DNA of 59,818 nucleotides from Deltaproteobacteria bacterium. GTDB lineage: Bacteria > Desulfobacterota > BSN033 > UBA1163. Positions 21,689-55,258 of this stretch are shown here, piece after piece. The notes under the pieces were generated by a model, which worked only from the letters and a program-made list of their open reading frames with translations, was not told where the DNA came from and did no database searches. Where the stretch lies: positions 1 to 59,818 of the forward strand of contig JAGXTA010000192.1 of assembly GCA_018333535.1 (NCBI GenBank), written 5' to 3'. The first letter of the stretch is position 1, and the number at the start of each line of letters is the position of its first letter. Made by a program: the position numbers and the translations under genes.

Positions 21689-21742
21689 ACCCGCAAGGAC
21701 CCTTCACAGTCTTATCCTCGAAGACTTCTTCGTGAAGCATAT

Positions 21743-21945
21743 CCAGGCCAGGTTTTCTGACTCTCCCGACCTTAACTCGCCTTCCCATCCTGCCCCTTCG
21801 ATCCTTCGATAAGCTCAGGACTCAGGGCTTCGGATAGTGGCTTTTTTTGTTAAGGCACTTACCCCTAAAATATGGGGTCGGGAATACAGCGGCGGGTCCG
21901 TCCCCGACTTTGACGGGGTTCCCTTTTCCCGGATACCACTGATTC
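21743..21945 (-). promoter_or_regulatory. Cobalamin riboswitch upstream of btuB and the cob operon
   Basis: On the minus strand the conserved cobalamin-aptamer blocks appear in order: GGGAAAAGGGAACCCCGT, GGACCCGCCGCTGTAT, GCCACT, GGGAAGGCGAGTTAAGG, and a B12-box-like AGTCAGAAAACCTGGCC at 21746-21762. A terminator follows before btuB. A dispersed palindromic repeat of the CCTGAGCTTATCGAAGGATCG type is inserted in a peripheral arm between the GCCACT and GGGAAGG blocks. This is the only B12 riboswitch I see for the operon. Confidence 0.9.
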
Positions 21946-21956
21946 AATTGGTTTTC

Positions 21957-21985
21957 ATTTAACAGATTAAGAAAAGGTTTGTCAA
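21957..21985 (-). promoter_or_regulatory. Sigma70-type promoter of the cobalamin riboswitch transcript
   Basis: Minus strand TTGACA, 17 bp spacer, TTAAAT. The -35 box begins just after the stop codon of the PfkB kinase gene, and transcription would start about 10 nt before the first conserved aptamer block. Confidence 0.65.
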
Positions 21986-33248: not shown

Positions 33249-33317
33249 GAAGAGATAGGGAGAAACATCTTTGTCCCCCTACCTCCCCACCACCCCATCT
33301 CCCTACCGTTGGAGGTA

Positions 33318-33860
33318 ATGATGAAGACTTATTTCATTCTGTCGGCAATCGGGAAGGACCGGCCGGGGATTGTGGCCGATGTTTCTGAGGTCATCTACGG
33401 ATGCGGAGGAAATATTGAAGATTCCAGCATGAGTCTCCTCCGGAATCATTTTGCACTTCTTCTCCTCTTTTCAACCGACAGTGAGGCGGTGAATCAGAAG
33501 CTTTCGTCTGGCTTGAAGCGTCTTGAATGGGAGAAGAACTTGACCGTCTTCTACTCTCCGGTCACTTTTGAGGAGGCTTATCCCAAAGCCGGGGAGCAGA
33601 CCGACCGGTATAAAATCACCACGTCCGGAGTAGACCATGCGGGTATTGTCTTCAAGGTCTGCCGCCTCTTGGCCGATCGTAAAGTCAACATCATCGATAT
33701 GAAAACCCATCGGGTGCTGTCTGCTGAGAGCGGAACTCCTCTTTTTGAAATGGATATTGATGTAGAGGTTCCTCACTCTGTCTCCGAACAAGGGTTTAGG
33801 GAAGATCTTCATCGCCTGGCCAACGAACTGATGATCGATCTGGTGTTGCGGAAGGCGTAA
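33318..33860 (+). CDS. GcvR-like protein with two ACT domains
   Basis: About 180 residues in two ACT domains: IGKDRPGIVADVSEVIYGCGGNIEDSSMS near the N-terminus and TSGVDHAGIVFKVCRLLADRKVNIIDMKTH near residue 105. In E. coli GcvR is a co-regulator of the glycine cleavage operon, and ACT domains bind amino acids. The glycine cleavage genes begin ~5 kb downstream, so a glycine-sensing role is possible, but no GcvA-like partner is visible. GGAGG precedes two adjacent ATG codons (33318, 33321); either could be used. Confidence 0.8.
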   Translation: MMKTYFILSAIGKDRPGIVADVSEVIYGCGGNIEDSSMSLLRNHFALLLLFSTDSEAVNQKLSSGLKRLEWEKNLTVFYSPVTFEEAYPKAGEQTDRYKITTSGVDHAGIVFKVCRLLADRKVNIIDMKTHRVLSAESGTPLFEMDIDVEVPHSVSEQGFREDLHRLANELMIDLVLRKA

Positions 33861-37420: not shown

Positions 37421-37449
37421 TTGACATCCCTCTCCGTTTGGAACAAAAT
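37421..37449 (+). promoter_or_regulatory. Sigma70-type promoter of the glycine riboswitch transcript
   Basis: TTGACA, 17 bp spacer, CAAAAT. The expected transcription start, about 37456, coincides with the first base-paired position of aptamer 1. Confidence 0.7.
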
Positions 37450-37455
37450 TTTAAG

Positions 37456-37641
37456 TAGGTTACAGGAGAGACCCCAAGGGGGGCGCCGAAGGGGCAAGTT
37501 CCGCTGAAGGCGGGATGAAACTCTCAGGCAAAAGGACTGTAACTTAAGAGATTCCTGGAAAGACCGAGGTGACAAGCCTCGGCACCGAAGGGGACAAATT
37601 CCGCCTATGGGCGGAATAATCTCTCAGGTCAAAAGACAGGA
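37456..37641 (+). promoter_or_regulatory. Tandem glycine riboswitch
   Basis: Two glycine aptamers in a row. Aptamer 1 (about 37457-37543) has GGAGAGACCCC, GGCGCCGAAGGGGCAA and AAACTCTCAGGCAAAAGGAC, closed by TTACAG/CTGTAA. Aptamer 2 (about 37552-37641) has GGAAAGACC, GGCACCGAAGGGGACAA and AATCTCTCAGGTCAAAAGACAGG, closed by CCTG/CAGG. A terminator starts at the end of aptamer 2, so glycine is expected to relieve termination (an ON switch, as known for this class). Confidence 0.95.
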
Positions 37642-37684
37642 GGAAGGCGATGCGGATAAGATTGCCTTCCTCCTTTTTATTTTG
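37638..37684 (+). terminator. Riboswitch-controlled intrinsic terminator
   Basis: An 11 bp stem AGGAGGAAGGC / GCCTTCCTCCT with a 15 nt loop, followed by TTTTTATTTT. Its first bases overlap the closing CAGG of aptamer 2, so glycine-bound P1 would compete with the terminator stem. Confidence 0.9.
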
Positions 37685-37697
37685 ACAGGAGATGAGT

Positions 37698-38114
37698 ATG
37701 GTTGATATTGTTTTTATCAGAATCGAGGAGTTGAGAGAACATGAGGAGATCCGGCCCGATTATCTCGAGGAGTTGAAGAACGAGATCCTTTCGGATGGGA
37801 TGCTCAAAATGCCCATAGCCGTGGATAGGAGCACTTACATCATCCTGGATGGGCATCATCGGCTCCATGCCTTGAAAAAGATCGGCTGTAAAAAGATTCC
37901 AGTCATTCTGGTCGACTATCAATCGATGGAAATAGAGGTGATTCCCTGGAGGGAGGGTGAAAAGATTACGAAAGAGATGATTATCGATACGGCCCTGACG
38001 GGGAAAAGAATGCGGCCTAAAACATCCAGGCACATGATACTGGTCGAAGGACAATTGAAGCACATCTCCTGTATCGAGACCATCATCAATGTTCCATTGG
38101 ATGAGTTGAGGTAA
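37698..38114 (+). CDS. SerK-like ParB/Srx-fold protein (possible free-serine kinase)
   Basis: 138 residues from ATG 37698, which is set at the right distance from AGGAG; an ATG at 37692 overlaps that site. It matches the archaeal ADP-dependent serine kinase SerK/SbnI type of ParB domain. There is an N-terminal REHEEIRPDYLEELKNEILSDGML with the acidic pair used in catalysis in that family. The phosphate-binding ILDGHHRLHALKKIGCKKIPVILVDY is followed by a tail with GKRMRPKTSRHMIL, as in SerK. It is the first gene under the glycine riboswitch, before gcvH. Kinase activity is inferred; a regulatory ParB-like role remains possible. Confidence 0.75.
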   Translation: MVDIVFIRIEELREHEEIRPDYLEELKNEILSDGMLKMPIAVDRSTYIILDGHHRLHALKKIGCKKIPVILVDYQSMEIEVIPWREGEKITKEMIIDTALTGKRMRPKTSRHMILVEGQLKHISCIETIINVPLDELR

Positions 38115-38300: not shown

Positions 38301-38687
38301 ATGGAATTTCCAGAAAATTTGCTCTATTCAGAAGACCACGAATGGGTGAGGGATGAGGGAAGCTTTGTAACCATTGGAATCACGGATTACGCCCAGAGCC
38401 AGTTGAAGGATATCGTCTATGTGGACCTTCCGGAGATCGGATCCGAGTATAAGAAAGGGGAGAGCATGGGAGTCGTTGAATCGGTGAAGACGGTTGCCGA
38501 CATCTTCTCTCCGGTCACCGGCAATGTCCTTGAAAAGAATCTGGAACTGAAGGACCATCCGGAATGGGTCAATACAGATCCCTATGGGAAAGGGTGGCTC
38601 CTCAGGATGGAATTGAATGAGAAGGAGGAGTTAAAGGGACTCCTCTCATCAAAAGCCTATCAGGGAACACTTTCAGAGGATTCGTAA
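38301..38687 (+). CDS. gcvH: Glycine cleavage system H protein
   Basis: Lipoyl carrier that shuttles the aminomethyl group between P-protein, T-protein and lipoamide dehydrogenase. 128 residues with HEWVRDEGSFVTIGITDYAQSQLKDIVYVDLPEIG and the lipoylation site Lys in VVESVKTVADIFSPVTG. AGGAGG precedes the ATG. The stop overlaps the gcvPA start by one base. Lipoylation enzymes are encoded downstream in the same run. Confidence 0.96.
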   Translation: MEFPENLLYSEDHEWVRDEGSFVTIGITDYAQSQLKDIVYVDLPEIGSEYKKGESMGVVESVKTVADIFSPVTGNVLEKNLELKDHPEWVNTDPYGKGWLLRMELNEKEELKGLLSSKAYQGTLSEDS

Positions 38688-40036
38688 TGGAAGACTACCT
38701 CCGCTACATCCCCCACACCCAAGAGGATGTCAGAGAGATGCTCGAAGCGGTTGGTGTGAGGAGTATTGAAGACCTCTTCGGAAGCATCCCTAAAGAACAA
38801 AGACTCTCAAAGCCCTTAGACCTTCCTGGTCCTCTCTCTGAGCCAGACCTTATCCGGCATGTGCAGGGTCTCGAGAGCCCAATCCTTACAAGTTTTATCG
38901 GCGGAGGAGCCTATCATCATTTTATCCCTGCTGTGGTTTCGCATCTGGCCTCCCGTTCCGAGTTCTATACCGCTTACACCCCTTATCAGCCGGAGATCAG
39001 CCAGGGAACGCTTCAAGCCATCTTTGAGTATCAGACCCTGATGTGCCAGTTAACCGGAATGGAGGTGTCAAATGCTTCGATGTATGACGGGGCATCGAGT
39101 TTGGCCGAAGCGGTGTTGATGGCTCACCGGATCACAGGGAGAAAGAAGATCCTGGTCTCGGAAGCAATCCACCCCGAATATCGTAAGGTCATCCAGACCT
39201 ATATCGACCCCGAAGAGCAGGAAGTTGTTCTGATCCCGTATCTGAAAAAAGAGGGGAGGACGAACGAGAAAGCTCTGGCCCAATTTCTTGACCAGGATGT
39301 GAGTGCGGTCATCATTCAGAGTCCGAATTTCTTCGGTGTGATTGAAGATCTTAAAAATATCGGTGAAGGAGTTCATAAAGCAGGAGGGTTGATGATCATC
39401 TGTTTCAGCGAAGCGATTGCCTACGGAATTCTGAAGCCACCCGGAGAAATGGGTGCCGATATCGTGGCGGGAGAAGGCCAGAGCCTTGGGATTCCCCTAT
39501 CCTTTGGCGGGCCTTATCTTGGCATCTTCACGACAAACGAGAAATTTATTCGAAATATGCCCGGACGGCTCGTGGGCGAGACCGTTGATCTGGAGGGGAA
39601 GAGAGGTTTTGTCCTCACGCTGGCGACCCGGGAACAACACATTCGCAGGGAGAAGGCGACCTCCAATATCTGCACGAATGAGGGGCTCTGCGCCCTGATG
39701 GCAACGGTCTATCTCTCCTGCCTCGGAAAGAAGGGATTGAGGGAATTAGCCCTGATGAACCTGAGCAAGGCGGAATATGCAAAGAAGGTAGCCTCGAGGA
39801 TTAAGGGTTGCAGGCTTACTTTCTCTTCTCCCACATTCAATGAGTTTGTCATGGAGATCGAAGGTGATCCTGAAAAGGTCTTGGAGAGATTGAGGAGAGA
39901 AGGAATTGTGGGCGGATTACCTTTAGCACGATTCTATCCTAAGCTTAACCGCCACCTCCTCGTCACGGTCACGGAGATGAATGCCCGGCAGGAAATCGAT
40001 CGGTGGGCTGAGGTGTTGGAGAAGGCGTTGAGATAA
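38687..40036 (+). CDS. gcvPA: Glycine dehydrogenase (decarboxylating) subunit 1
   Basis: N-terminal half of the split P-protein. 449 residues starting MEDYLRYIPHTQEDVREMLEAVG, with FIGGGAYHHFIPAVVSHL, YTPYQPEISQGTLQAIFEYQTLMCQLTGMEVSNASMYDGASSLAEA and TREQHIRREKATSNICTNEGLCALMATVYL, all typical of GcvPA. It works with GcvPB as a heterodimer. Confidence 0.96.
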   Translation: MEDYLRYIPHTQEDVREMLEAVGVRSIEDLFGSIPKEQRLSKPLDLPGPLSEPDLIRHVQGLESPILTSFIGGGAYHHFIPAVVSHLASRSEFYTAYTPYQPEISQGTLQAIFEYQTLMCQLTGMEVSNASMYDGASSLAEAVLMAHRITGRKKILVSEAIHPEYRKVIQTYIDPEEQEVVLIPYLKKEGRTNEKALAQFLDQDVSAVIIQSPNFFGVIEDLKNIGEGVHKAGGLMIICFSEAIAYGILKPPGEMGADIVAGEGQSLGIPLSFGGPYLGIFTTNEKFIRNMPGRLVGETVDLEGKRGFVLTLATREQHIRREKATSNICTNEGLCALMATVYLSCLGKKGLRELALMNLSKAEYAKKVASRIKGCRLTFSSPTFNEFVMEIEGDPEKVLERLRREGIVGGLPLARFYPKLNRHLLVTVTEMNARQEIDRWAEVLEKALR

Positions 40037-40155
40037 GAAAACAATGTCAAATGTCAAAGTTCAAAGTTCAAATGAAATTCAAATTTAAAATGTCAAATAT
40101 TTAGACATTGGTCATTTGTCATTCCTTTGGCATTTGGATTTTGACATTTGAACTT
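40037..40155. repeat. AT-rich self-complementary repeat before gcvPB
   Basis: Consists of AATGTCAAA, TTCAAATGA and their complements (ATTTGACA, TTTGACATTTGAAC), a family also seen in the 75 nt gap before the helicase gene at 30894-30968. No regulatory element is recognised. The repeat pushes the gcvPB open frame upstream of its real start. Confidence 0.55.
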
Positions 40156-41679
40156 ATGGAAGATTCCCCAAAGGCAGTTTGTCCGAGAGAGATTACAATG
40201 AGGAGCAAAAGAGATACCGGTTTGATTCAAAATGAACCTTTGATTTTTGAACAGGGTGGCAAAGGTAGAAGGGGATATTCTTTGCCCCGATGGGATGTTG
40301 AGGTGGTGGATGTCAATAATCTCATCCCATCTCATCTCTTAAGGAAGGAACTGGAAGGGTTTCCTCAACTGAGCGAGATGGATGTGGTTCGCCACTTCAC
40401 GCGGCTTTCCCAGTGGAACTATGGCGTCGATAGCGGGTTCTATCCATTGGGTTCCTGCACGATGAAATACAACCCTAAAATAAATGAAGAAGTGGCGGGG
40501 ATGAAGGGGTTCGCCCATATTCATCCCTATCAACCGGAGAGCCTCGTCCAGGGCATTCTTAAACTGATGGTTGAACTCGGAGGTTTTCTCTCCGAGATCA
40601 CGGGGATGGATCAGGCGACCCTTCAGCCGGCCGCAGGGGCTCATGGTGAGCTGACCGGGATGATGATGATCCGGGCGGTTCTCCAGGCCCGTGGCGAAAA
40701 GAGGAAGAGGGTGCTAGTGCCGGACACTGCCCACGGAACCAACTGCTCGACTTCAACCGTTGCTTCCTATCAGGTGGTGGAGATCAAATCGAATGAGAGG
40801 GGAGTCATCCCGCCCCGGAAGGTTGAAGAGTTGATGGACGAAGAGGTTGCCGGAATCATGGTGACCAATCCCAATACCCTCGGGTTCTTTGAAGAACATC
40901 TGGCAGAGATCGCTGAGATTGTTCACCGCAAAGGAGGGTTTGTCTATTGCGATGGAGCCAATCTCAATGCTTTAATGGGAATCGTAAAACTGGGTGATCT
41001 CGGAGTGGATATGGTTCACCTCAACCTTCACAAGACTTTCTCGACACCTCATGGCGGAGGAGGCCCTGGGGCCGGGCCTCTGGCGGTGAAAAGGGAGCTG
41101 GCTCCTTTTCTTCCTGTGCCGGTAATCGAAAAGGAGGGAGAGACCTACCGGCTCAATTACGATCGGTCTCAGAGTATCGGAAGAATGAAGGCCTTCTACG
41201 GGAACTTCGGAGTCATCCTCAAGGCTTATGCCTATATCCTCTCCATGGGAGCAGAGGGACTTAAGAGGGCGAGTGAGATGGCAGTGCTCAATGCCAACTA
41301 TCTGATGAAGGGACTGAAGGGCTCTTACCATCTTCCCTACGATCGACCCTGCATGCATGAATGTGTCTTCACCGACCGGTATCAAGAGAAGCATCATGTC
41401 TCAACGCTGGACATTGCGAAGAGGTTGATCGATTACGGATTTCATCCACCGACCATTTATTTTCCTTTGGTGGTCAAGGGTGCGCTGATGATGGAGCCCA
41501 CGGAAACAGAAGGCAAAGAGGAACTCGATCGATTTATTGAGACGATGATGGCGATCGCCAAAGAGGCGGAAGAGAATCCCGACTTGCTCCGGCAGGCCCC
41601 CACCAAGGTTAAGGTGAGACGGCTCGATGAGATCCTGGCGGCCAGAAAACCAAAGTTGAAATGGATCCCCAACAAATAA
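40156..41679 (+). CDS. gcvPB: Glycine dehydrogenase (decarboxylating) subunit 2
   Basis: C-terminal, PLP-binding half of the P-protein. The recognisable start is LIQNEPLIFEQGGKGRRGYSLPRWDVE; the PLP lysine lies in DMVHLNLHKTFSTPHGGGGPG, and GSCTMKYNPKINEEVA and MEPTETEGKEELDRFIE are family motifs. ATG 40156 is used here; ATG 40198 is equally possible, since neither has a clear ribosome site. The longer frame from 40108 is repeat sequence. Confidence 0.94.
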   Translation: MEDSPKAVCPREITMRSKRDTGLIQNEPLIFEQGGKGRRGYSLPRWDVEVVDVNNLIPSHLLRKELEGFPQLSEMDVVRHFTRLSQWNYGVDSGFYPLGSCTMKYNPKINEEVAGMKGFAHIHPYQPESLVQGILKLMVELGGFLSEITGMDQATLQPAAGAHGELTGMMMIRAVLQARGEKRKRVLVPDTAHGTNCSTSTVASYQVVEIKSNERGVIPPRKVEELMDEEVAGIMVTNPNTLGFFEEHLAEIAEIVHRKGGFVYCDGANLNALMGIVKLGDLGVDMVHLNLHKTFSTPHGGGGPGAGPLAVKRELAPFLPVPVIEKEGETYRLNYDRSQSIGRMKAFYGNFGVILKAYAYILSMGAEGLKRASEMAVLNANYLMKGLKGSYHLPYDRPCMHECVFTDRYQEKHHVSTLDIAKRLIDYGFHPPTIYFPLVVKGALMMEPTETEGKEELDRFIETMMAIAKEAEENPDLLRQAPTKVKVRRLDEILAARKPKLKWIPNK

Positions 41680-41827: not shown

Positions 41828-41843
41828 AAATTAAATTTTGCCT

Positions 41844-42518
41844 ATGGATGGAAACGGAGACATTGTAGACCTCGGAACAGTAGATTATGCTAAGGCGTTG
41901 GACCTTCAGCACCATTTCTGGTCGAGGCGAGTCGAAGAAGAGCTACCCGATCTTCTGCTTCTCCTTGAGCATCCTCATGTGATCACGCTCGGAAGGCGGG
42001 GAGAGCGATCCCACTTGCTCATTTCCCCGGATGTTCTGGAGGCCATGAAGATTCCCCTCTTCCATACGGAGCGGGGCGGTGATGTCACCTATCATGGCCC
42101 CGGCCAACTGGTCGTCTATCCCATTTTCAATTTAAAGGATTATGGATATCGCCTTATCCAGTATGTGAGCCAATTGGAAGAGGTGATCCTCTCCGTCTTG
42201 AGGGATTTTGGGATCGAAGGGAAAAGGGATTTATCCAATCGTGGGGTCTGGGCAGGGGGCGACAAGATTGCCTCCATTGGCGTGGCCATTAAACGATGGG
42301 TCTCTTTCCACGGGATTGCCTTAAACTACGCAACAGATTTAAAATATTTTGAACTGATCAATCCCTGCGGCCTCAAAGGGAAGAAGATGACCTCGATGGA
42401 GAAGATTCTGAGAAGAAATGTTCCCAGAGACAGATTGATTGAGAGGATCATTTTCCACTTTAAAGAAATTTTTAAAAGAAACTGGCTGGAAAAGGGGTTA
42501 AAGGAAATTGATAAATAG
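41844..42518 (+). CDS. lipB: Octanoyltransferase LipB
   Basis: Transfers octanoyl from ACP to lipoyl domains such as GcvH. 224 residues with the conserved TERGGDVTYHGPGQLVVYPIFNLK, the catalytic-lysine segment KIASIGVAIKRWVSFHGIALN and the catalytic-cysteine region INPCGLKGKKMTSM. ATG 41844 is used; the frame extends two codons to a TTG. It is followed by lpdA and lipA, giving a complete H-protein lipoylation set. Confidence 0.95.
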   Translation: MDGNGDIVDLGTVDYAKALDLQHHFWSRRVEEELPDLLLLLEHPHVITLGRRGERSHLLISPDVLEAMKIPLFHTERGGDVTYHGPGQLVVYPIFNLKDYGYRLIQYVSQLEEVILSVLRDFGIEGKRDLSNRGVWAGGDKIASIGVAIKRWVSFHGIALNYATDLKYFELINPCGLKGKKMTSMEKILRRNVPRDRLIERIIFHFKEIFKRNWLEKGLKEIDK

Positions 42519-42669: not shown

Positions 42670-44064
42670 ATGAACCCAAAGAGAATTGTAATTATCGGCG
42701 GAGGTCCTGGCGGTTATGTGGCTGCCATCCGGGCGGCTCAATTGGGAGCAAAACCCATCCTCATCGAGAAGGATAAGATCGGCGGAACCTGTCTCAATCG
42801 TGGGTGTATTCCCACAAAAGCCCTTCTGCACGATGCAAAATTACTTCACTCACTCAAAGGGTCCCCTGTCTTTCAGCTCCTTTCCTTCGACACTTCCGGA
42901 CTTCTAAACCCAATGATGGAGCGGAAGAAGAAGGTCGTTGAGGAGCTGGTAAAGGGCGTCGAGATATTGCTCGAATCGCATCGGGTGACCATTAAGCATG
43001 GTCAGGCTGACCTTTTGAATCCCAATCAAGTGGTTCTGTTGAATGGAGAGAAAGAGATCATTGATGCTGATACAATCATTTTGGCTCCCGGTTCGAAATC
43101 GAAGGGACTTCCAAACATCACTCCAGACAGTAACATGATCATCACCAGTGATGAAGCGCTGGAGATAACACAAATCCCCCGGGAAATGGTCATCATCGGT
43201 GGAGGATACATCGGCGTTGAGTTTGCCACGCTCTTCAATACACTCGGTTCAAGAGTGACGGTTGTAGAGATTCTAGAGAATATTCTTCCTGGACTTGAGG
43301 GAGAATTAGTCCGGAATCTTCGGAGGTTTCTGGAAAGGGATGGGGTCAAGATTTTAACTCAATCCTCTGTCGAAGAGATTCAGTATGGGGAGAATGGGTT
43401 AAGGCTTACGGTTAAAACCCCCCAGGGGATCCAGGAGATCATTGCTGAAAAATTACTTATGGCTGTGGGAAGAGGCCCCAGCTTAGAACTAAGTTTTTCA
43501 AAGGCAGGTATTGAGATTTCCCCTAAAGGGATTAAGGTCAACCGTCGAATGGAAACAACTGCTCCGGGTATCTATGCGATCGGGGATGCCATTGAAGGAA
43601 TCATGCTTGCCCATGTGGCAATGGAGCAGGGAATGGTGGCAGCGGAGAATGCAATGGGTCTCCATCGGAAATGGGAATCCCCTTTGATTCCTCTCTGCAT
43701 CTTCTCCCATCCTGAAGTGGCTTCCATTGGCCTCACTGAAAAAGAGGCGAAGGCAAAAGGGGAGATAAAGATTGGCCGTTTCCCGTTCCGGTCCAATCCG
43801 AAGGCCGTAATCTCAGGAGAGACCGATGGTCTGATCAAAGTGATTGCGAGTCGCGAGAACGACACCCTCTTAGGTGTCCATATCATTGGGTCTGAGGCAA
43901 GCGTTCTCATCTCCATTGCATCAACAATGATAGGGGGCAAACTGAAAGAATTCGCGAGCTTGATTCAAGCCCATCCCACCATTCCGGAAGCGTTGAAGGA
44001 GGCATGCCTCGATGTGGATGGATTGGCGATTCATCTCCCGAAACCGCTCCGACCGGGCAAATAA
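42670..44064 (+). CDS. lpdA: Dihydrolipoamide dehydrogenase (L protein)
   Basis: Flavoprotein that reoxidises dihydrolipoyl-GcvH with NAD+. 464 residues. FAD motif IIGGGPGGYVAAIRAAQLGA; redox disulfide GGTCLNRGCIPTK; NAD motif VIIGGGYIGVEFATLFNTLGSRVTVVE; YAIGDAIEGIMLAHVAMEQG; C-terminal active-site His in IQAHPTIPEALKEA. It is placed between lipB and lipA. Confidence 0.96.
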   Translation: MNPKRIVIIGGGPGGYVAAIRAAQLGAKPILIEKDKIGGTCLNRGCIPTKALLHDAKLLHSLKGSPVFQLLSFDTSGLLNPMMERKKKVVEELVKGVEILLESHRVTIKHGQADLLNPNQVVLLNGEKEIIDADTIILAPGSKSKGLPNITPDSNMIITSDEALEITQIPREMVIIGGGYIGVEFATLFNTLGSRVTVVEILENILPGLEGELVRNLRRFLERDGVKILTQSSVEEIQYGENGLRLTVKTPQGIQEIIAEKLLMAVGRGPSLELSFSKAGIEISPKGIKVNRRMETTAPGIYAIGDAIEGIMLAHVAMEQGMVAAENAMGLHRKWESPLIPLCIFSHPEVASIGLTEKEAKAKGEIKIGRFPFRSNPKAVISGETDGLIKVIASRENDTLLGVHIIGSEASVLISIASTMIGGKLKEFASLIQAHPTIPEALKEACLDVDGLAIHLPKPLRPGK

Positions 44065-44081: not shown

Positions 44082-44945
44082 ATGGGAATTGAAAAAAAAC
44101 CTCCATGGCTGAAAAAACGGATTCCGCCTTATCAGGATCTTCTTAAAGTGAAGACCCTCCTGGAAGAATCAGGCCTTCACACCGTTTGCGAGGAGGCGCA
44201 TTGCCCGAACCTCGGGGAGTGTTTTTCGCAAGGGACCGCAACCTTTCTAATCCTGGGTAATGTCTGCACAAGAAATTGCGGGTTCTGTGCTGTCCAGCAC
44301 GGAATTCCTGCCCCTCCTGCCGCAGATGAACCCAGCAGGATAGGTAGGGCAGTTTTGGGGATGGGCATCTGCTATGCAGTCATTACCTCTGTCACACGGG
44401 ATGATTTGCCCGATGGCGGAGCCTCTTTTTTTGCGAGAACGATCGAAACGATTCGAGAACAGGATCAAGGAATAAAAATTGAGGTACTAGTTCCAGATTT
44501 CAGGGGAGACCTCTCTTCTCTCGAGACAATCCTTCGTGCGTCTCCGGATGTCCTTAATCACAATGTCGAAACAATTGCCCGGCTTTATCCTCAAGTCCGA
44601 CCTCAAGCTGATTATAAGAGATCGCTTGGCCTGTTGAAAAAAGCGAAAGAGCTTTATCCCCATATTCATACGAAGTCCGGTTTTATGCTTGGGCTCGGAG
44701 AGACTCAAGAAGAAGTCTTGGAACTGCTTCGAGATTTGAGAAACACAGGATGCGATTTTTTAACGATCGGTCAATATCTTCAACCCCGTCAGGATCGTTT
44801 GCCGGTGGTCCGATATGTTCCTCCCGAGGAGTTCGATATGTATAAGAGAATAGGTCTTGAGATGGGCTTAAAAGCGGTTGCCTCCGGCCCCTTTGTCCGA
44901 AGCTCCTTACATGCCTCGGAGATGTACATCCTTACCTTAATTTAA
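44082..44945 (+). CDS. lipA: Lipoyl synthase LipA
   Basis: Radical SAM enzyme inserting two sulfurs into octanoyl-H protein. 287 residues. The auxiliary cluster cysteines are in CEEAHCPNLGEC, the radical SAM cluster in CTRNCGFCAVQHG, and the terminal RSSLHASEM motif is the conserved RSS(Y/L)HA end. It starts 17 nt after lpdA. With lipB it gives the endogenous lipoate route. Confidence 0.96.
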   Translation: MGIEKKPPWLKKRIPPYQDLLKVKTLLEESGLHTVCEEAHCPNLGECFSQGTATFLILGNVCTRNCGFCAVQHGIPAPPAADEPSRIGRAVLGMGICYAVITSVTRDDLPDGGASFFARTIETIREQDQGIKIEVLVPDFRGDLSSLETILRASPDVLNHNVETIARLYPQVRPQADYKRSLGLLKKAKELYPHIHTKSGFMLGLGETQEEVLELLRDLRNTGCDFLTIGQYLQPRQDRLPVVRYVPPEEFDMYKRIGLEMGLKAVASGPFVRSSLHASEMYILTLI

Positions 44946-52543: not shown

Positions 52544-55258
52544 ATGTCAACGGACTTAAAACAGACGCCATTGTATTCCTGGCATCAGGAACATGGGGCG
52601 CAGATGGTGGAGTTTGCCGGCTGGGAGATGCCTGTTTCTTATAAGCCGGGCATCCTTGAAGAGCATCTGGCCACAAGGAAATTCGGAGGTCTCTTTGACA
52701 TCTCCCATATGGGAAGGTTTCTCATCTATGGGGAAGAAGCCATTCCCTTTTTACAGCAAGTCCTGACGAATAATGTCTTTGCCCTGGAGCACGGCATGGC
52801 CCAATACACCCTGATCCAGAATGAATGGGGCGAAGCCATTGATGATGCTTATCTTTATCGGCTGGATATAGGAAACCTTCCTTCAGAATCGAGATACCTT
52901 CTTGTGGTCAATGCCGCCAATAAAGTGAGAGACTGGAATTGGTTGATTGAGCATAAGAGACGGTTCAGGGGCCTCATCCTCGAAGATAAGAGCGACGAGA
53001 TGGGAATGATTGCCCTCCAGGGCCCCGTGACCAAAAGGGTGTTGGAGAAGATCGTCATCGAAAGCCATTCAAAACTCCCTGATCCCTGGAGGAATCGCTT
53101 GAGGGTTTGCGAGATCGAAGGGACCAGAGTCGCTGTGACCATCTCAAGAACCGGATATACGGGAGAACCTATCTGCTTCGAGCTCTTTTCTGAGAGAGAG
53201 AAAATGCGGATGATCTGGGAAGCGATCCTCGCCGTTGGAGAAAAAGAAGGGATTGTCCCTGTGGGTTTGGGGGCAAGGGACACCCTGAGGATAGAGGCAG
53301 GTCTTCCCCTGTATGGCCATGAATTGGGGCTCGATCAAGAGGGAAAAGAGATACCCATCTTTGCGGTTTATTCAGCCGGATTGGCAGTCAGTTTTTCTCC
53401 TTTGAAAGGGGATTTTATAGGCAGGGAGGCCCTGCGGAGACAGTTTGAAGAATTGAAAGCAAGGACGGATGGAACTCCTCTGCCACCCAGAGAGAAACAG
53501 ACCATTCCCAGAAGGGTTGTACCCATTGCGATGATCGGAAGTCAGGGTGGACAGGCGATCGCCAGGCAAGGGTATGAAGTGTTTGTGGACGGGAGGAAGG
53601 TCGGATATGTGACCAGTGGGACGATGATTCCCTACTGGAATTTCTCCGATGAAGGGATCCTGTCCAAACCGATTGAAGAAAAGGGGATGAGGGCCATTGC
53701 CTTGGCCTATATCGATTCCGATTTTGAAGATGGACAGAAGATTGAGATTCAACAGAGGGGAAAGACGATTGAAGGAATCATCGTAGAAAAGCATTTATCT
53801 GGTGAGGCGCCTCCCTATGCCCGGCCCATTCTGTTTCAGGAGAAGATATTAAAAAGGCGTGAGCCTGTCAGGGATTTGAAAGATGCGGCAAAAAAGCTGG
53901 TCGAGCGGGCGATCCGGAATACCTACTGGAGGCAGAGAGAGACGATTAACCTTATTCCTTCGGAACAGACGCCGTCCCCGTTGGTAAGACTCCTCACGAT
54001 CATGGATCCATCGCACCGGTATGCGGAGCACCGTGTCGTCAAGGCCCTTGGAGAGAGGGATGTTTTCTATTATCAGGGGACGAAGTTGATCGAAGAGGTG
54101 GAAGTCCTCCTTGCGGATGAGATGCGAAGCTATTTAGGGTGCTCCGAGGTTGAGGCGAGGGTGATCAGCGGGCAGATGGCCAACACGGTTGTCTTCAGCG
54201 GCTTGATGGATTATCTCAACCGGCTCGACCGGAAGAGCGATCCTCGAAGGATCAGGAAGGTGATGAATCATCATCTCGGAAGGGGGGGCCATCTCAGCGC
54301 ACAACCCATGGGTGCTCTGAGAGATTTTATAGCCATCGATCCTCTGACGGAGAGGCCTTCCGTGGTTCCGTTCCCGGTGCTGAAGGAGGATCTCTATCAG
54401 ATCGATCTCTCCAAAACAGAAGAACTTCTGGGAATACATAAACCTGAGTTGATCATTCTTGGCAAGAGCATGATCCTTTATAGGGAACCTCTCAAAGAGG
54501 TTGCGCGGATGGCATCCAATATCAAACCCAGGCCGATCATTCTTTATGACATGGCCCATGTATTGGGATTGATCGGACCCTATTTTCAGGAACCCTTTCA
54601 GGAGGGAGCGGATATCGTCACCGGTTCCACTCATAAAACCTTTTTCGGTCCCCAGAGGGGGATCATTGGGAGCAATATGTCAGAAGGGACGTCGTACGAG
54701 GACCTCTGGGAAGCCATTGTCCGGAGGGTTTTCCCCGGAAGTGTGAGCAACCATCATCTCGGAACGCTTTTAGGACTGCTCATGGCGGCCTATGAGATGA
54801 ATCTCTATAAATCAGACTATCAGAAGGCAGTGATCTCCAATGCCAAAGCCTTTGCCCGTTCTTTGAAAGAGAAAGGATTAACCATGGAGGGAGACTCGCG
54901 GCTTGGATATACGGAAACCCATCAGGTGATCGTCAGAGTGGGTTATGGAAAGGGACCGGTCGTGGCCGAACGGCTTGAGGAGAACAATATCATCGTCAAC
55001 TATCAGGCCGCTCCGGATGATGAGGCTTTCACTGCGGCGAGTTGCTTGAGGATGGGAGTCCAGGAGATGACCCGCTTCGGAATGAAGGAGGAGGACTTCG
55101 GACAATTAGCAGAATACATAGGCGAGATTATTCTCCATGGCCGATCCGTGGCAAAGGGAATTGTTCAGTTCAGAAAGAGATTCACGGAGATGAAATACTG
55201 TTTGCCGGAGGAAGAGGCTGAATCCCTGGTCAATGGACTCATTGAAGCGATCCGATGA
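52544..55258 (+). CDS. Fusion of aminomethyltransferase (GcvT) and serine hydroxymethyltransferase (GlyA-like)
   Basis: 904 residues. Residues 1 to about 430 are GcvT: QTPLYSWHQEHGAQMVEFAGWEMPVSY, FDISHMGRF, IPVGLGARDTLRIEAGLPLYGHEL-type motifs, and GTMIPYWNFSDEGI near the T-protein C-terminus. From ~445, AIRNTYWRQRETINLIPSEQTPSPLV begins an SHMT with HRYAEHR, SGQMANTVVF, LYDMAHVLGLIG and the PLP lysine in TGSTHKTFFGPQRGIIGSN. GcvT produces 5,10-methylene-THF and SHMT uses it with glycine to make serine, so the fusion could pass the one-carbon unit directly. No frame break is visible. Confidence 0.93.
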   Translation: MSTDLKQTPLYSWHQEHGAQMVEFAGWEMPVSYKPGILEEHLATRKFGGLFDISHMGRFLIYGEEAIPFLQQVLTNNVFALEHGMAQYTLIQNEWGEAIDDAYLYRLDIGNLPSESRYLLVVNAANKVRDWNWLIEHKRRFRGLILEDKSDEMGMIALQGPVTKRVLEKIVIESHSKLPDPWRNRLRVCEIEGTRVAVTISRTGYTGEPICFELFSEREKMRMIWEAILAVGEKEGIVPVGLGARDTLRIEAGLPLYGHELGLDQEGKEIPIFAVYSAGLAVSFSPLKGDFIGREALRRQFEELKARTDGTPLPPREKQTIPRRVVPIAMIGSQGGQAIARQGYEVFVDGRKVGYVTSGTMIPYWNFSDEGILSKPIEEKGMRAIALAYIDSDFEDGQKIEIQQRGKTIEGIIVEKHLSGEAPPYARPILFQEKILKRREPVRDLKDAAKKLVERAIRNTYWRQRETINLIPSEQTPSPLVRLLTIMDPSHRYAEHRVVKALGERDVFYYQGTKLIEEVEVLLADEMRSYLGCSEVEARVISGQMANTVVFSGLMDYLNRLDRKSDPRRIRKVMNHHLGRGGHLSAQPMGALRDFIAIDPLTERPSVVPFPVLKEDLYQIDLSKTEELLGIHKPELIILGKSMILYREPLKEVARMASNIKPRPIILYDMAHVLGLIGPYFQEPFQEGADIVTGSTHKTFFGPQRGIIGSNMSEGTSYEDLWEAIVRRVFPGSVSNHHLGTLLGLLMAAYEMNLYKSDYQKAVISNAKAFARSLKEKGLTMEGDSRLGYTETHQVIVRVGYGKGPVVAERLEENNIIVNYQAAPDDEAFTAASCLRMGVQEMTRFGMKEEDFGQLAEYIGEIILHGRSVAKGIVQFRKRFTEMKYCLPEEEAESLVNGLIEAIR

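What the first reader, a model, noticed from the sequence alone, without database searches (positions are those of the whole stretch)
37421..38114. Glycine riboswitch controls a SerK-like protein ahead of the glycine cleavage genes
Seen: promoter, tandem glycine aptamers and a terminator, then a 138-aa ParB/Srx-fold protein with HEE, ILDGHHRLHALKKIGC and PKTSRH, then gcvH-gcvPA-gcvPB. Known: archaeal SerK and staphylococcal SbnI, of this fold, phosphorylate free L-serine using ADP or ATP. Inference: when glycine is abundant the cell would make the cleavage system plus a kinase turning serine (from glycine via SHMT) into O-phosphoserine, entering central metabolism through phosphoserine aminotransferase/3-phosphoglycerate in reverse, or feeding cysteine synthesis.
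Basis: partly seen in the sequence, partly recalled or inferred. Interest (0 to 1): 0.75.

Follow-up and report, generated by a model that had tools for sequence, protein, structure and literature searches.

The report
Glycine-switched minimal serine kinase operon
In a family of uncultured bacteria, an RNA switch that senses the amino acid glycine sits in front of a very small protein that looks like the core of a known enzyme that phosphorylates free serine, followed by the genes that break glycine down, suggesting (but not yet proving) a coupled route that turns surplus glycine into serine phosphate and central metabolites.

Summary
A conserved promoter, two glycine aptamers (Rfam RF00504) and an intrinsic terminator precede a 138-aa ORF, followed by gcvH-gcvPA-gcvPB-lipB-lpd-lipA. 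All ten genomes with sequence upstream of the gene keep the riboswitch there; wherever the contig continues, gcvH-gcvPA-gcvPB follows. The terminator's 5' arm overlaps the P1 strand of aptamer 2, so the switch should be ON with glycine.

The protein is the SerK/SbnI core. The predicted model (pLDDT 94.8) superposes 129 of 138 residues on archaeal SerK (Z 18.9); ParB proteins score only about 8. Catalytic Glu (SerK E30/SbnI E20), Asp (SbnI D58), DGHHR and KTSRH are kept, but about 95 residues of SerK are missing and there is no HTH. Equally short homologues on rhizobial plasmids occupy SbnI's place in siderophore operons with SbnA-like enzymes, supporting kinase function of the short form. The only glyA found is a GcvT-SHMT fusion 11 kb away; serC-serA and serB are present.

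Best reading: a minimal free-serine kinase co-induced with glycine cleavage, phosphorylating serine made from two glycines. Serine kinase activity and the fate of phosphoserine remain inference. New variant of known kinds.

The parts
37421..37449 (+). sigma-70-type promoter, TTGACA-17-CAAAAT
   Evidence: conserved in 11 other leaders
37453..37549 (+). glycine riboswitch aptamer 1
   Evidence: RF00504, 71.9 bits
37553..37641 (+). glycine riboswitch aptamer 2; P1 37553-37557 pairs with 37637-37641
   Evidence: RF00504, 44.4 bits
37638..37684 (+). intrinsic terminator; 5' arm shares 37638-37641 with P1 of aptamer 2 (ON-switch layout)
   Evidence: conserved in 12 leaders
37698..38114 (+). 138-aa SerK/SbnI-core protein (mini-SerK); E16, D51, DGHHR 51-55, KTSRH 108-112
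38301..38687 (+). gcvH
   Evidence: Pfam/NCBIfam
38687..40036 (+). gcvPA
40108..41679 (+). gcvPB (start codon may be further downstream)
41838..42518 (+). lipB, lipoyl transferase
42670..44064 (+). lpd, dihydrolipoamide dehydrogenase
44082..44945 (+). lipA, lipoyl synthase
52544..55258 (+). GcvT-SHMT (GlyA) fusion, 904 aa; the only SHMT-domain protein found in this genome
   Evidence: downstream of the operon in relatives
33309..33860 (+). double-ACT protein, resembles the glycine cleavage repressor GcvR; upstream of the leader in relatives

Best explanation
A tandem glycine riboswitch acts as a transcriptional ON switch for one operon that makes a minimal SerK/SbnI-type free L-serine kinase together with the glycine cleavage H, PA and PB proteins and their lipoylation and Lpd partners. 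When glycine is abundant, aptamer 2 keeps its P1 helix, the terminator cannot form and the operon is read. Glycine cleavage plus the GcvT-SHMT fusion turn two glycines into one serine, and the small protein phosphorylates serine to O-phosphoserine, with Glu16 as catalytic base and a nucleotide bound by DGHHR and KTSRH. Most likely fate: SerC and SerA run in reverse to 3-phosphoglycerate, as reported for Thermococcus SerK; the NADH used by SerA would balance that made by glycine cleavage. Shown here: RNA elements, operon, conservation, predicted fold, active-site residues, genes for the route. Inferred: switch direction, kinase activity, roles of the motifs, donor, fate.
For: Riboswitch, promoter and terminator with overlapping P1. 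The gene is found in 11 genomes of one family (window included); the 10 with upstream sequence all have the riboswitch, and gcvH-gcvPA-gcvPB follows where the contig continues. Model pLDDT 94.8; 129/138 residues on SerK structures, Z 15.0-18.9, rmsd 1.4-1.9 A, SbnI Z 13.2-16.3, ParB/Noc about 8. Deposited SerK mutants E30Q/E30A fall on the column of E16. SbnI kinase needs Glu20 and Asp58 (PMC9641203); both columns are kept, and E16, D51, H54, R55, K108, H112 are invariant in 12 diverse short homologues. Short homologues next to SbnA-like genes in 11 of 16 plasmid loci, 2 more in other IucA/IucC siderophore operons. GcvT-SHMT fusion; serA next to a SerC-like aminotransferase; serB. dN/dS about 0.1. 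Thermococcus precedent: PMC5120207.
Against: No activity data were found for any insertion-less SerK. SerK residues about 108-202 are absent and may contribute to serine binding. NCBIfam SerK score 73.6 against a cut-off of 380. SerK of T. kodakarensis uses ADP, and another SerK-like protein bound CTP (PMC12704722), so donor and even catalysis may vary. serB would undo the reaction unless controlled. Several genomes of the class carry gcv genes without this gene, so it is not needed for glycine cleavage. The terminator's pair counts exceed most slid controls but not clearly the shuffles.
Confidence: 0.58

Rival explanations
1. It is a free-serine kinase, but its O-phosphoserine feeds biosynthesis (cysteine through an O-phosphoserine-using cysteine synthase, or a diaminopropionate-type compound) rather than central metabolism.
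For: Short homologues on rhizobial plasmids lie beside SbnA-like genes; SerK makes a cysteine precursor in Thermococcus.
Against: No SbnA, SbnB or siderophore gene in the operon here; the neighbours are catabolic and lie behind a glycine riboswitch. Cysteine genes of this genome were not searched.
Confidence: 0.2
2. It is a nucleotide-binding regulator or switch of the glycine cleavage genes or proteins, not an enzyme.
For: The ParB fold is often a nucleotide switch (PMC12704722); SbnI and EdeB, both of about 255 aa, are also reported to act in transcription (PMC9641203).
Against: No HTH or dimer domain: 129 of 138 residues belong to the SerK core. The two residues that SbnI needs for kinase activity are invariant.
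Confidence: 0.15
3. It is a kinase for another small hydroxyl substrate of this pathway or a related amino alcohol.
For: The SerK region missing here could change specificity; distant short homologues lie in polysaccharide and NRPS clusters.
Against: The SbnI-like gene context of other short homologues points to serine; serine is the direct product of the pathway it is encoded with.
Confidence: 0.12

Closest known systems
SerK, ADP-dependent free serine kinase (Thermococcus kodakarensis TK0378; PDB 5x0b; P. furiosus 1vk1)
   Same: Core fold, catalytic Glu30, DGHHR and KTTRH motifs; link to serine, glycine and 3-phosphoglycerate metabolism
   Different: 138 aa against 242; lacks SerK residues about 108-202; bacterial, in a glycine cleavage operon under a glycine riboswitch; donor unknown
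SbnI, serine kinase/regulator of staphyloferrin B synthesis (PDB 5uje, 6nr6)
   Same: Core fold, Glu20 and Asp58 columns
   Different: SbnI has about 254 aa and a siderophore context; no siderophore genes here
Short 'ParB N-terminal domain' proteins of rhizobial siderophore plasmids
   Same: 131-153 aa, roughly 31-40% identity, same motifs, no insertion
   Different: Next to SbnA/SbnB-like genes; lack the extra C-terminal hairpin of the window protein
Tandem glycine riboswitch (RF00504) ahead of gcv operons
   Same: Two aptamers, terminator expression platform, gcv genes
   Different: First gene is a SerK-core protein; no paper found in the searched library links the two
ParB/Noc and sulfiredoxin
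   Same: ParB/Srx fold, Z about 8
   Different: No HTH or clamp domains here; kinase residues instead

Membership tests
SerK (NCBIfam NF053625) | Score above the curated cut-off | tested here: not met
   73.6 bits against 380; only profile positions 13-101 of 244 match
SerK/SbnI structural family | ParB/Srx core fold of SerK, C-terminal part included | tested here: met
   129/138 residues, Z up to 18.9, chain range 15-242 (predicted model)
SerK/SbnI structural family | Catalytic Glu (E30/E20) | tested here: met
   E16, invariant
SerK/SbnI structural family | Asp of the DG.HR motif (D58 of SbnI) | tested here: met
   D51, invariant
SerK/SbnI structural family | KTTRH C-terminal motif of SerK | tested here: met
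   K108-H112 aligned to SerK 221-225
SerK/SbnI structural family | Middle segment, SerK about 108-202 | tested here: not met
   absent; alignment jumps from SerK 107 to 203
SerK/SbnI structural family | Phosphorylation of free L-serine | not testable with these tools
   needs an enzyme assay
ParB DNA-partition proteins | HTH and C-terminal dimer domains after ParB_N | tested here: not met
   138 aa nearly fully used by the SerK core; Pfam finds ParB_N only above its cut-off
Glycine riboswitch RF00504 | Both aptamers above gathering score | tested here: met
   71.9 and 44.4 bits against 32
Glycine riboswitch RF00504 | Glycine binding and regulation | not testable with these tools
   in-line probing or transcription assay needed

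The most novel reading that the evidence does not exclude
A glycine-induced, redox-neutral assimilation route in bacteria: two glycines to serine (glycine cleavage plus a GcvT-SHMT fusion), serine to O-phosphoserine by a 138-aa SerK core acting as a free amino acid kinase, then to 3-phosphoglycerate by SerC and SerA in reverse.
Probability: 0.3. Interest if true: 0.75.

Novelty: new variant of a known kind. Interest (0 to 1): 0.57.

Why it matters
Makino et al. (PMC5120207) found clear SerK homologues only in a few archaea. A half-length version, locked to a glycine riboswitch and glycine cleavage in bacteria and at SbnI's place in rhizobial siderophore operons, would show that a ~140-residue ParB/Srx core suffices for a metabolic kinase. 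It would also define a bacterial route from glycine to central metabolism, and it warns that proteins annotated 'ParB N-terminal domain' may be serine kinases. One enzyme assay can test it.

Tried and rejected
DNA-binding ParB regulator: no room for an HTH; ParB structures score about 8 against about 18 for SerK. Idea that the protein replaces serB: rejected, serB is present over its cut-off. Idea that gcvT is missing from the genome: it is fused to SHMT at 52544-55258. Covariation of the terminator helix: not decisive against shuffles. Viral contigs: no relative found. Wider search of the phylum with the family profile: outside this family one full-length distant relative, otherwise only longer frames matching the N-terminal domain. 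Literature: no paper in the library joins glycine riboswitch and free serine kinase; the SerK and SbnI structure papers are not held, so ligand contacts could not be checked.

Full report
The leader. cmscan finds two glycine aptamers at 37453-37549 and 37553-37641, 71.9 and 44.4 bits against a gathering score of 32. A TTGACA-17-CAAAAT promoter starts 32 bases before aptamer 1 and is conserved in eleven other leaders. After aptamer 2 comes a 14-pair hairpin, 37638-37674, -24.2 kcal/mol, followed by TTTTATTTT. Its 5' arm starts with AGGA, the same bases 37638-37641 that close P1 of aptamer 2 with 37553-37556, so the glycine-bound aptamer and the terminator exclude each other. A hairpin with a T tail at the corresponding place is found in all twelve family leaders and in three leaders of related families. 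Direction (ON with glycine) is inferred from this layout, not measured. Pair counts on the terminator gave 88.7% standard pairs, more than any slid control, but covariation was not clearly above shuffles.

The protein. ORF 37692-38114; the second ATG, 37698, sits at a normal distance from AGGAG and gives 138 aa. Pfam sees ParB_N above its cut-off and nothing else. NCBIfam's best hit is archaeal SerK, E 1e-20, but at 73.6 bits of a 380-bit cut-off and over profile positions 13-101 of 244. Against solved structures the best hit is free serine kinase 5x0b, E 1e-13 alone and 2e-18 with the family profile; residues 3-91 match SerK 15-107 and the PKTSRH region matches SerK 203-227 with PKTTRH. The predicted model (pLDDT 94.8) aligns 129 of 138 residues with SerK 15-242 at 1.4-1.9 A, Z 15.0-18.9, SbnI at Z 13.2-16.3, sulfiredoxin 8.6 and ParB about 8. 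So the protein is the whole SerK core with SerK's residues of about 108-202 left out.

Active site. The deposited SerK mutants E30Q and E30A replace the very residue that aligns to E16. A paper on EdeB states, citing the SbnI work, that Glu20 and Asp58 were required for SbnI kinase activity (PMC9641203); by the alignment these are E16 and D51 here. E16, D51, G52, H54, R55, K108 and H112 are invariant in twelve diverse short homologues.

Family and operon. The gene occurs in 11 of 23 genomes of the class, the window's own included, all in one family and three genera, and elsewhere in the sampled phylum only as one distant full-length relative. In the ten cases with upstream sequence the glycine riboswitch is directly before it; the eleventh, G355, starts at a contig edge. 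gcvH-gcvPA-gcvPB follows wherever the contig continues. G081 and G237 keep the gcv genes but gave no SerK-like gene and no riboswitch match, though G237's contig ends inside gcvH; three genomes of other families in the class (G258, G393, G399) have the riboswitch and gcv genes without it. In G192 the riboswitch instead precedes an aminotransferase and a glyoxylate/hydroxypyruvate reductase-like enzyme, and no gcvPA was found in that assembly. The gene is under purifying selection, dN/dS about 0.1 where dS can be estimated.

Pathway genes. The only SHMT-domain protein found in this genome is fused to GcvT: 904 aa, 52544-55258, GCV_T, GCV_T_C and SHMT domains. In relatives it lies downstream of the same operon. 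SerA is present with a class V aminotransferase directly before it, presumably SerC, and serB is present. In Thermococcus, SerK with SerA is proposed, on genetic evidence, to carry serine carbon to 3-phosphoglycerate (PMC5120207). From established biochemistry, glycine cleavage makes one NADH per serine formed and reverse SerA uses one, so the route would be redox neutral; this is inference.

Short homologues elsewhere. tblastn finds 95 plasmid records, mostly rhizobial. Of 16 plasmid loci read, 11 encode an SbnA-like cysteine synthase family protein nearby, two more lie in IucA/IucC operons with a citrate-lyase-like and a type III PLP enzyme, and three in NRPS-type clusters. NCBIfam's SbnA and SbnB models match the neighbours tested at about E 1e-70 and 3e-28, below their cut-offs. 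SbnA uses O-phosphoserine made by SbnI (known from the staphyloferrin B pathway; own knowledge), so the short form occupies SbnI's place. This is the best evidence that the insertion is dispensable, but it is indirect and the identity is only about 31-40%.

Verdict. Observation confirmed and extended; the SerK reading survives its main tests; catalysis and the metabolic fate are untested. A new variant of the SerK/SbnI kind in a new regulatory and metabolic setting.

Noticed in passing
window 52544-55258: GcvT-SHMT fusion protein of 904 aa; each genome of the family has a single SHMT-domain hit, in most of them in this fusion. In G258 and G337 the order is reversed, SHMT before GCV_T, in one open frame, suggesting independent fusions.
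   Followed up: partly
window 37475-38075: Mosaic: the leader and most of the kinase gene are closest to G279 (L024), while the rest of the operon is up to about 98% identical to G395 (L025), with a break near 38075. Recombination between relatives or an assembly chimera.
   Followed up: partly
L066 5055-7726: In G192 the same riboswitch precedes an aminotransferase and a glyoxylate/hydroxypyruvate reductase-like enzyme instead of the kinase and gcv genes.
   Followed up: partly
L034 8346-8759: Distant 137-aa SerK-core protein between two nucleotidyltransferase-like genes and near a DegT-type aminotransferase in a polysaccharide-type cluster.
   Followed up: no
L133 3365-3817: Vibrio phage Va2 encodes a short SerK-core homologue with the Glu, DGHHR and KYTRH motifs.
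   Followed up: no
window 21732-21968 (-): Cobalamin riboswitch, 50.5 bits.
   Followed up: no
window 33309-33860: Double-ACT protein weakly matching the glycine cleavage repressor GcvR, kept upstream of the riboswitch in relatives.
   Followed up: partly
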